Shown: one piece after another, positions 1,445-3,472 of the stretch
Position numbering within the stretch: the stretch's first letter is position 1
Layout of the letters: each line of letters opens with the position of its first letter
Origin: Saprospiraceae bacterium
Lineage (GTDB): Bacteria; Bacteroidota; Bacteroidia; Chitinophagales; Saprospiraceae
Direction of reading: 5' to 3'
Length of the DNA stretch: 64,000 nt
Assembly (NCBI GenBank): GCA_020630495.1
Contig: JAHDBH010000001.1
Span: 17,889-81,888, forward strand
Position numbers and translations under genes: made by a program
Notes under the pieces: model-generated
The model's database searches: none
The model's input: the letters and a program-made list of their open reading frames with translations, nothing else
Told to the model about the DNA's origin: nothing

Positions 1445-2410
1445 ATGGGCTTATCATCACTTTGGCATCCTGAGCGCTATCATGGCTGGAGAAAATCTCG
1501 GAGTTACTTTGAAGGATGGTACTATAAGGTGGTAAGCGCTGACGAGAAATTTGCTATGGCGTTTATTCCTGGAATTGCCATGGATGCAGAGGGGAATCAA
1601 CAGGCATTCATTCAAGTCCTAGATGGTAGAGCTCGTACGGCGGCATATCACAAGTTTCCTGCTGAGGCATTCCAGATGTCACGTGATGATTTTAATCTTC
1701 GCATCGGCGGTAATCACTTTACTAGTGACAGTCTCGAGATCGACGTTGCTGGTACCAGGGCGTCTTTGACGTTTAGCGATATGGTGCCATGGCCATCCTC
1801 GTGGTATAGTCCTGGCATCATGGGGCCATTTTCATTTGTGCCGATGATGCAATGTTATCATGGAATACTAAGTATGGATCACCGTGTGAGCGGAACTATA
1901 GAGCACCATGGTCACAAGATCGATATGGATGGTGGGCGTGGCTATATGGAGAAAGACTGGGGGAGATCATTCCCTGAGGCGTACATATGGATGCAGAGTA
2001 ATCATTTTAGTGAATCGGGCATTTCTCTGAAGGCGTCTGTAGCCAAAATCCCCTGGATGGGTACTTCGTTCGTAGGTTTTATTGGTGGATTGTGGCTTGG
2101 TGATAGGTTGATACAATTTACGACGTACAATTTCAGTAGGCTGGTCCATTGCAAAGTAGATCAGGGGGAGGTGCAGTTGGAGCTAAGGAGTCCTAGGTTT
2201 ATTTTAGAGATCCAAGCTTTACGAGCTGCGAGTACGGAGCTAGCCTCGCCGATAATGGGTTTCATGGACGGTCGGATCGAGGAGAGCATGGAAGCCGAGT
2301 TGAGAGTGCTGCTGCGCGAACGGCGAGGGGGCGGTGTGGTGCTGGATGGAGTTGGTCGAAGTGGTGGGCTTGAGGTTGCGGGGGTGGTGCGGGAGCTTGA
2401 TACTTTATGA
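1445..2410 (+). CDS. Tocopherol cyclase-like family protein
   Basis: WHPERYHGWRKSRSYFEGWYYKVV...MEKDWGRSFPEAYIWMQSNHF resembles the tocopherol cyclase family. Confidence 0.7.
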   Translation: MGLSSLWHPERYHGWRKSRSYFEGWYYKVVSADEKFAMAFIPGIAMDAEGNQQAFIQVLDGRARTAAYHKFPAEAFQMSRDDFNLRIGGNHFTSDSLEIDVAGTRASLTFSDMVPWPSSWYSPGIMGPFSFVPMMQCYHGILSMDHRVSGTIEHHGHKIDMDGGRGYMEKDWGRSFPEAYIWMQSNHFSESGISLKASVAKIPWMGTSFVGFIGGLWLGDRLIQFTTYNFSRLVHCKVDQGEVQLELRSPRFILEIQALRAASTELASPIMGFMDGRIEESMEAELRVLLRERRGGGVVLDGVGRSGGLEVAGVVRELDTL

Positions 2411-2419
2411 ACTATCAAA

Positions 2420-2458
2420 AATTTAACATACATTTGACTGTAAAATGTATGTTAAATT
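2420..2458. promoter_or_regulatory. Perfect 16-bp inverted repeat, candidate operator of the downstream wHTH-PRTase gene
   Basis: AATTTAACATACATTT-gactgta-AAATGTATGTTAAATT immediately upstream of the ATG at 2474; no T-tract after it. Confidence 0.65.
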
Positions 2459-2473
2459 AATACCCTTCTTGCC

Positions 2474-3472
2474 ATGCCAACCATCAAAACTCTACCACAC
2501 ATCCTCGCCCTACTACACTCCTACCATACCCTGCGCCCTGTCCAAATTCACAAAATGACTGGAATCTCAAGACAGCAAATACACAACGTGCTCCGGTCGC
2601 TACTCCAACAAAACAAAATCATACGCCGAGGTAAAGCACCGCTCTCGTACTACTCTTTGAAAACAGCAGAGGTCAAAAACAACGATACAATCTTGGATAT
2701 CTCGCCGCAGCAGGCAGAACAGCTTGATAAAGACTTTGTGATTATCAAGAGAGAAGGTCGTCAAGTACACGGCGCCAGAGCGGTCTGCGACTACGCGCAG
2801 GAGCACAATGTTGATCCACAATCTGTAGCTGAGCAATTTTTAAAAGAACGCTCCGCCCTATCTCATTCCCTTTCCACCGCAGACAGCGGCGCAGCCGATC
2901 AGATAGAACTACTTGAGACTAAGACAGAGGTGGAAGAAGGGGTCATATCACGGTACAATTTTGCCGACTTTGTATCTGCAGGCAATTTTGGTATGACAGC
3001 CACCGCAAAGAAACTACGTGCCGCTAAGGCTAGTGATGACGGAGTGTTGCAGATGGAGTTATTTCAAAGCATAGAGAAGCAAGTTCACGAGTACATCATG
3101 GATTATGCGATTGATGCTGTCGCATTCATGCCAGGGTCATCCGCATGGGGGAAGCGATTTATGACACGCTGGAAAGAACACCTTGACTTACCACTTCCAC
3201 ATGTAGATCTAGTGCGTGCTGTGACGGATGTGTCCACTCCGCAGGACGCTATTTCTCTCAGAGAAGATCGTGCGGAGCATGCGGATTGTACGCTGATAGT
3301 CGCTGACCACAGGAGATTTGAGCATGTATTGATTCTAGATGATGAGTTGCTCACAGGTCGGAGTATGATGCATGCCAGCAGACGGATATTGGATGCAGAG
3401 GTGAGTGAGCGTGTATCGGCTTATACGATCACCTATGAGCATAGATCAGAAGATAATCCAGTACCAAACTGA
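2474..3472 (+). CDS. Winged-HTH protein with C-terminal phosphoribosyltransferase-like domain, probable transcriptional regulator
   Basis: N-terminus LRPVQIHKMTGISRQQIHNVLRSLLQQNKIIRRG (HTH); C-terminus VLILDDELLTGRSMMHA resembles a PRPP-binding loop. Confidence 0.65.
   Translation: MPTIKTLPHILALLHSYHTLRPVQIHKMTGISRQQIHNVLRSLLQQNKIIRRGKAPLSYYSLKTAEVKNNDTILDISPQQAEQLDKDFVIIKREGRQVHGARAVCDYAQEHNVDPQSVAEQFLKERSALSHSLSTADSGAADQIELLETKTEVEEGVISRYNFADFVSAGNFGMTATAKKLRAAKASDDGVLQMELFQSIEKQVHEYIMDYAIDAVAFMPGSSAWGKRFMTRWKEHLDLPLPHVDLVRAVTDVSTPQDAISLREDRAEHADCTLIVADHRRFEHVLILDDELLTGRSMMHASRRILDAEVSERVSAYTITYEHRSEDNPVPN

What the first reader, a model, noticed from the sequence alone, without database searches (positions are those of the whole stretch)
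2420..3472. wHTH-PRTase regulator with a perfect 16-bp palindromic operator candidate
A predicted winged-HTH fused to a PRPP-loop-containing domain (VLILDDELLTGRSM) is preceded by AATTTAACATACATTT-N7-AAATGTATGTTAAATT, ending 15 bp before the ATG. The layout recalls PurR of Bacillus (wHTH plus PRTase fold) or archaeal GfcR, which sense PRPP/nucleotides, but the sequence looks unrelated. No purine operon adjoins, so the regulon is unknown.
Basis: partly seen in the sequence, partly recalled or inferred. Interest (0 to 1): 0.6.

Follow-up and report, generated by a model that had tools for sequence, protein, structure and literature searches.

The report
Multiplied regulator gene with scattered palindromes
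A DNA-binding protein fused to a nucleotide-enzyme-like domain very probably switches its own gene through a palindromic DNA site; this bacterium carries nine diverged copies of it and has the same kind of palindrome scattered in gene-free clusters, an arrangement none of 119 searched relatives shows.

Summary
In detail: window 2420-2458 is a 39-bp near-perfect palindrome, 15 bp before a 332-aa ORF (2474-3472) with an N-terminal winged HTH and a C-terminal ComF-like PRTase with PRPP loop. The protein is neither PurR nor GfcR. Its best relative is the C-terminal half of the RecQ-PRTase toxin PsyrT/RqlH (PADLOC E 5e-11 to 4e-22), without the helicase and without an antitoxin neighbour. I compared 18 members. 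Nine are single copies in other genomes (eight Bacteroidota, one Patescibacteria); all nine, and at least seven of the nine copies in this genome, have a palindrome within about 80 bp of the ATG. The nine paralogues of this genome are intact and monophyletic. Their operators share TTTAC-W-GTAAA and vary in flavour. That 11-mer occurs 18 times here against 0 for the reversed control. A longer form occurs 32 times against 0, with no excess in 119 relatives. About 28 copies lie away from family promoters, in gene-free clusters spaced 81-383 bp, and several match one paralogue's operator flavour. I read this as an expanded family of self-repressing, probably PRPP- or nucleotide-responsive regulators with dispersed extra binding sites. 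Binding and effector are untested; the clusters' job is unknown.

The parts
2420..2435 (.). Left arm of the palindromic operator candidate (AATTTAACATACATTT)
   Evidence: dyad extends inward through GAC|T|GTA to a 39-bp palindrome with one mismatched pair
2436..2442 (.). Centre GACTGTA; with the inner arms it forms the family core TTKAC-W-GTAAA
   Evidence: TTTAC-W-GTAAA shared by paralogue operators and dispersed sites
2443..2458 (.). Right arm of the palindromic operator candidate (AAATGTATGTTAAATT)
   Evidence: no terminator match here
2461..2468 (+). Position of a Bacteroidota-type -7 box (TAnnTTTG), degenerate here (TACCCTTC); most paralogues have TATCTTTG or TATATTTG at the same place, 12-15 bp before the ATG, so the transcript would be nearly leaderless
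   Evidence: for paralogues; the -7 consensus is general knowledge of Bacteroidota promoters
2474..3472 (+). wHTH-PRTase gene, 332 aa, the putative autoregulator
2489..2659 (+). Winged HTH (residues 6-62); recognition helix about residues 33-45 (SRQQIHNVLRSLL)
   Evidence: secondary structure; weak Pfam TrmB/HTH_29/MarR hits; AspA and MarR wHTH matches
2999..3433 (+). ComF-like PRTase-fold domain (about residues 176-320)
3326..3367 (+). PRPP loop VLILDDELLTGRSM (D289, D290 and G295 invariant in all 18 members)

Best explanation
The gene encodes a transcription factor of a hitherto unnamed family: winged HTH plus ComF-type PRTase fold, the same module that forms the C-terminal half of PsyrT/RqlH. 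Dimers (perhaps paired dimers, since many operators hold two TTTACNN heptads per arm) bind the palindrome at or beside the promoter and repress the gene's own near-leaderless transcript. The PRTase pocket most likely senses PRPP or a nucleotide and changes DNA affinity, as in PurR. In this genome the gene was duplicated to nine kept copies. Each has its own operator flavour, and related flavours occur as extra binding sites in gene-free intergenic clusters, where they may titrate the repressor, allow looping or act on neighbouring genes. Shown: the anatomy, the palindrome beside nearly every member, the expansion, the clusters and their intergenic position, and purifying selection on the proteins. 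Inferred: binding, repression, ligand, and the role of the clusters.
For: A palindrome lies upstream of the family genes, with 0-1 of 300 shuffles as good for ten of the fifteen tested and weaker support for the rest, and likewise a palindrome for L101, L103 and L104 (no shuffle test). In a survey of 135 upstream regions all five scores of 11 or more belong to the family. Where checked, the site is nearly confined to its gene: the exact 15-mer occurs once in G339, at the gene. Operator type follows the recognition helix: S/TKQ proteins have ACTATT/AATAGT in the operator (5 of 5), S/TRQ proteins do not (0 of 12). TTTACWGTAAA occurs 18 times against 0 reversed; all 18 are complementary at the next position out (+-6), using three different pairs (A-T 6, C-G 7, T-A 5; sequences). 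ACANTTTACWGTAAANTGT with up to 2 mismatches occurs 32 times against 0 here and shows no excess in 119 relatives. Flavour matches between a gene operator and dispersed sites are beyond shuffles for five of seven operators. D289, D290 and G295 of the PRPP loop are invariant. Precedent: PurR, wHTH plus enzymatically inactive PRTase fold, has PRPP as inducer (PMC8789054).
Against: No binding data exist. Operators of paralogues C275 and C234 are poor palindromes. Palindrome position differs: upstream of the -7 box in this genome, between -7 box and ATG in G045, G548 and L104, so one repression geometry does not fit all. The dispersed clusters mostly lie 100-640 bp from the next start codon or between convergent genes, which is unusual for operators. 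No target pathway is evident. The K/R rule follows phylogeny, so it is not independent evidence. Fold models are of moderate confidence. The flavour test uses sites found because they resemble the operators.
Confidence: 0.66

Rival explanations
1. REP/RAYT-like dispersal: the protein, or the palindrome itself, promotes spread and tandem copying of palindromic units, so the clusters are selfish or structural repeats and the upstream palindrome is one end of the unit rather than an operator.
For: Similarity between paralogues starts at the palindrome and ends about at the stop codon. Clusters are spaced 81-383 bp, sometimes tandem copies (C54, C303). In G265 near-identical 38-bp palindromes flank the gene on both sides. 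A gene fragment with a site remains at C70.
Against: The protein has no nuclease or transposase domain. Other carriers have one gene and few or no further sites. Sites are A+T-rich and symmetric, unlike GTAG/CGTC-tagged REPs. In C201, palindromes stay 61-81% alike while most spacers are no more alike than shuffled sequence, which suggests constraint on the sites. At 65-68% DNA identity, neutral flanks would look unrelated anyway, so the unit borders prove little.
Confidence: 0.12
2. Toxin-like effector: a stand-alone PsyrT/RqlH-type PRTase that is genotoxic when derepressed, kept off by its own operator or by an antitoxin elsewhere, perhaps as phage defence.
For: Best database match is PsyrT over nearly the full length of the query. 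In RqlH the C-terminal PRTase domain causes the genotoxicity (PMC4670107).
Against: No RecQ domain. Neighbours tested are unrelated and give no PADLOC hit, so no DprA-like antitoxin is linked. Nine co-resident toxins with no partner are hard to explain. No relative was found in viral contigs, plasmids or phages.
Confidence: 0.11
3. The palindromes are sites of an unrelated regulator, such as a Bacteroidota LexA, that controls the gene.
For: LexA-like regulators of Bacteroidota bind short palindromes, one being TTAC-N5-GTAA (PMC8565304).
Against: Main motifs there are CTAA-N5-TTAG and GGA-N5-TCC. Here the motif travels with the gene across families and even into Patescibacteria, varies with its HTH, and is not enriched in relatives lacking the gene.
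Confidence: 0.07
4. The palindrome acts as RNA: a terminator of the upstream gene or a leader hairpin.
For: The transcript would fold well (-15.9 kcal/mol, z -6).
Against: Only A-U-rich stem, no T-tract, no terminator match. Several family palindromes have a one-base centre, poor as hairpins. Position relative to the -7 box varies. No Rfam match in the dispersed clusters.
Confidence: 0.04

Closest known systems
PsyrT / RqlH (RecQ helicase with C-terminal PRTase; PsyrTA phage-defence toxin)
   Same: The whole protein aligns to profile positions 362-685 of 689 of PsyrT, i.e. wHTH-like segment plus PRTase
   Different: No helicase half; no linked PsyrA/RqlI antitoxin; has its own palindromic operator and, here, nine paralogues
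PurR of Bacillus
   Same: wHTH plus PRTase-fold regulator; inverted-repeat operators; PRPP sensed in the PRTase pocket (PMC8789054)
   Different: No sequence membership; no pur operon; operators TTTAC-W-GTAAA rather than CGAA-centred paired PurBoxes; likely autoregulation of a single gene
ComF/GntX PRTases
   Same: Best PRTase subfamily by profile (TIGR00201, E 3.5e-8 for relative L024) and by fold coverage (H. pylori ComF 7p0h); single-copy members have a conserved PQKxLSKxxERxxNA segment that recalls the ComF hood (from memory)
   Different: wHTH instead of the zinc ribbon; score far below the ComF cut-off
GfcR (archaeal wHTH-PRTase)
   Same: Domain layout
   Different: No significant profile match (best E 0.041 in a relative)
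REP/BIME palindromes with RAYT transposases
   Same: Clustered intergenic palindromes linked to one protein family
   Different: No HuH transposase; A+T-rich symmetric sites; about 40 sites rather than hundreds; sites vary with paralogue

Membership tests
PurR (Bacillus) | Match to PurR profile models (PurR N-terminal domain, purR family) | tested here: not met
   no PurR model among hits up to E 1
PurR (Bacillus) | PRPP-binding loop DDxxxT/SGxS/T | tested here: met
   D289, D290, G295 invariant in 18 members; binding itself not tested
PurR (Bacillus) | Regulates purine synthesis genes | tested here: inconclusive
   no purine gene beside the gene or the clusters examined; distant or indirect targets not excluded
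GfcR | Match to GfcR model NF045507 above cut-off | tested here: not met
   only L024, E 0.041, 13.4 bits against cut-off 300
PsyrT/RqlH (PsyrTA) | C-terminal wHTH-PRTase module | tested here: met
   E 5.5e-11 (window), up to 4.1e-22 (L024), aligned end to end with the C-terminal half
PsyrT/RqlH (PsyrTA) | N-terminal RecQ helicase | tested here: not met
   332-aa ORF begins at the wHTH; no helicase domain
PsyrT/RqlH (PsyrTA) | Adjacent DprA-like antitoxin | tested here: not met
   neighbours tested of the window gene and several relatives are unrelated; unlinked antitoxin not excluded
PsyrT/RqlH (PsyrTA) | Toxic or genotoxic on expression | not testable with these tools
   needs expression in a laboratory strain
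REP/RAYT system | Y1-HuH transposase encoded with the palindromes | tested here: not met
   no transposase or HuH domain in the family protein
REP/RAYT system | Palindromes dispersed in extragenic positions | tested here: met
   clusters examined all lie in gene-free intervals
Autoregulatory operator of a wHTH repressor | Dyad-symmetric site at the gene's own promoter, conserved with the gene | tested here: met
   exceptions C275 and C234 imperfect
Autoregulatory operator of a wHTH repressor | Protein binds the site and represses | not testable with these tools
   needs EMSA or reporter assay

The most novel reading that the evidence does not exclude
A protein-palindrome system new in kind: a PRTase-fold DNA-binding protein family that has multiplied together with its palindromic sites into chromosomal clusters, each paralogue with its own site flavour, so that the clusters serve as cognate non-promoter binding platforms (titration, looping or chromosome organisation) or spread in a REP-like way without any transposase.
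Probability: 0.25. Interest if true: 0.82.

Novelty: new variant of a known kind. Interest (0 to 1): 0.62.

Why it matters
It gives the wHTH-PRTase module of PsyrT/RqlH, known mainly as a genotoxic defence part, a likely stand-alone life as a DNA-binding regulator with defined target sites, which makes its DNA specificity and ligand directly testable. The nine paralogues and their matching site flavours in one genome are a natural series for studying how a repressor and its operator diverge together. The gene-free clusters pose a clear question: why does a cell keep dozens of operator-like sites away from promoters?

Tried and rejected
Terminator reading rejected. PurR and GfcR membership rejected. 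Bacteroidota LexA sites considered and judged unlikely. Spread on plasmids, phages or viral contigs sought and not found. Linked toxin-antitoxin partner sought and not found. Dispersed clusters as known RNA: only tRNAs matched. CRISPR-like regular spacing considered: spacing 81, 81 in C198 and 92, 92, 99 in C201 looks regular, but some spacers are diverged copies of each other (C201 first pair, C54), so tandem duplication with decay is simpler. The pair-count is biased because sites were chosen for dyad symmetry; the unbiased form is the 18 exact core sites, all complementary at +-6. First related-loci query (single protein) found nothing. PADLOC and model calls with wrong coordinates or structure length failed and were repeated.

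Full report
Observation. Window 2420-2458 reads AATTTAACATACATTT-GACTGTA-AAATGTATGTTAAATT, ending 15 bp before the ATG at 2474. The dyad extends inward around a central T (18 of 19 pairs). No dinucleotide shuffle of the upstream 100 bp scored as high (0 of 300). The ORF 2474-3472 encodes 332 aa. The exact palindrome occurs once in the genome.

Protein. Single-protein Pfam hits are weak but point to a winged HTH (residues 9-60) and a PRTase (236-327). PADLOC aligns residues 2-323 with positions 362-685 of the 689-position PsyrT model, E 5.5e-11, and E 4.1e-22 for relative L024. ComF is the best PRTase subfamily for the relatives. The models (pLDDT 66 and 71) show H-H-H-beta-beta, a small middle part and an alpha/beta PRTase-like domain; Foldseek finds PyrR, other PRTases, ComF, and MarR/AspA wHTHs with modest scores. 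In 18 members D289, D290 and G295 of the PRPP loop are invariant. Catalysis and ligand are untested.

Distribution. The own genome has nine intact paralogues and one 59-aa fragment at C70. In 399 genomes of the order and 396 of the phylum, only a handful carry a single full-length copy. A second member of the same genus (G001) has none, and there pckA and hemW are neighbours without the tocopherol-cyclase-like gene and the wHTH-PRTase gene that lie between them in the window. Loci L103 (Bacteroidetes MAG) and L104 (Patescibacteria MAG) extend the family. The nine paralogues form one clade with 100/100 support; dN is 0.24-0.53 with dS saturated, so they are old and kept by selection.

Operators. 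The nine single-copy relatives carry palindromes close to their ATG, often overlapping or next to a TAnnTTTG-type -7 box: for example AAATTTAGTTTACAGTAAA-TTG-TTTACTGTAAACTAAATTT (L074), GTTTACAGTTTAC-A-GTAAACTGTAAAC (L073), ATTTGACTATTGA-TAG-TCAATAGTCAAAT (L101), ATAGTATATAGTACAC-A-GTATACTATATACTAT (L104). Seven of nine paralogues here have a clear palindrome; C275 and C234 are imperfect. In a mixed background of 135 upstream regions the five strongest inverted repeats all belong to the family. Many operators hold TTTACNN or TTGACNN units 7 bp apart, facing each other. Proteins with S/TKQ at the start of the recognition helix have ACTATT/AATAGT in the operator (5 of 5); those with S/TRQ do not (0 of 12). 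This follows the tree, so it is supportive rather than independent.

Dispersed sites. TTTACWGTAAA occurs 18 times in this genome against 0 for the pattern read backwards. All 18 are complementary one position further out, with three kinds of pair (6 A-T, 7 C-G, 5 T-A; sequences). ACANTTTACWGTAAANTGT with up to two mismatches occurs 32 times against 0; in 119 relatives the counts are about the same as the control. A covariance model finds further sites. Away from the promoters of the family they form clusters in gene-free intervals: C201 (5 sites), C54 (6), C198 (3), C111 near 34 kb (3), C126, C151, C256, C205 and C303 (2 each), and single or contig-end sites at C301 and C33. Spacings are 81-383 bp. 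The C303 array follows pyk and its contig overlaps C301, so that junction is one locus cut by the assembly. C205 ends in the tRNA gene with which C307 begins, so its two sites probably lie close upstream of paralogue C307, whose TACTTTAGTATAAAG flavour they share. The window operator's flavour is shared by the C303/C301 sites (34 bp, 94% identity). For five of seven gene operators the best dispersed match beats shuffled arms (conditional on how sites were found). In C201, palindromes are 61-81% alike while most spacers are no more alike than shuffled sequence. In G265 a second 38-bp palindrome lies 43 bp behind the gene, between convergent genes.

Mechanism. The simplest reading is negative autoregulation: the wHTH dimer covers the promoter, and the PRTase pocket adjusts binding in response to PRPP or a nucleotide, as PurR does with PRPP and ppGpp (PMC8789054). 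The extra sites would bind the same proteins and could titrate them, support looping, or touch neighbouring genes (smc, ruvB, pyk and others lie next to clusters, without a common theme). Steps shown here: anatomy, association of palindrome with gene, expansion, clustered intergenic sites. Steps inferred: binding, repression, ligand, role of clusters.

Alternatives and limits. A REP-like dispersal, a stand-alone PsyrT-type toxin, a foreign regulator, and an RNA element were weighed (see rivals). The genome is a draft of 331 contigs, one genome per species was searchable, and some clusters sit at contig ends. Fold models come from three sequences only. No binding or expression data were available.

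Verdict. The likeness to PurR is one of design, not shown to be one of descent. I rate it as a new variant of a known kind.

Noticed in passing
L036 (G000:C303) 1-601 and L037 (C301) 1-120: 383-bp tandem repeat behind pyk that includes the window-type palindrome; the first 170 bp of the two copies are nearly identical while the rest has diverged, as if gene conversion were centred near the palindrome.
   Followed up: partly
L074:1445-1482 and 2519-2556 (G265): Single-copy family gene flanked on both sides by near-identical 38-bp palindromes, the downstream one between convergent genes.
   Followed up: partly
L064:2350-3000 (G000:C54): Array of about 90-bp tandem units, several with a palindrome ACARTTTACAGTAAGCTGT, between two convergent genes.
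   Followed up: partly
window 1445-2410: Tocopherol-cyclase-like gene (Pfam PF14249, E 2.7e-23) next to the regulator; not in this interval in the same-genus genome G001.
   Followed up: partly
L104:4998-5993: A Patescibacteria MAG encodes a full-length member of the same family with its own palindrome at the ATG; horizontal transfer or binning error not checked.
   Followed up: no
L042 (G000:C70) near 2750-3000: 5' fragment of a family gene next to rlmN with its CTTTACTGTAAAG site still intact, a decaying copy.
   Followed up: partly
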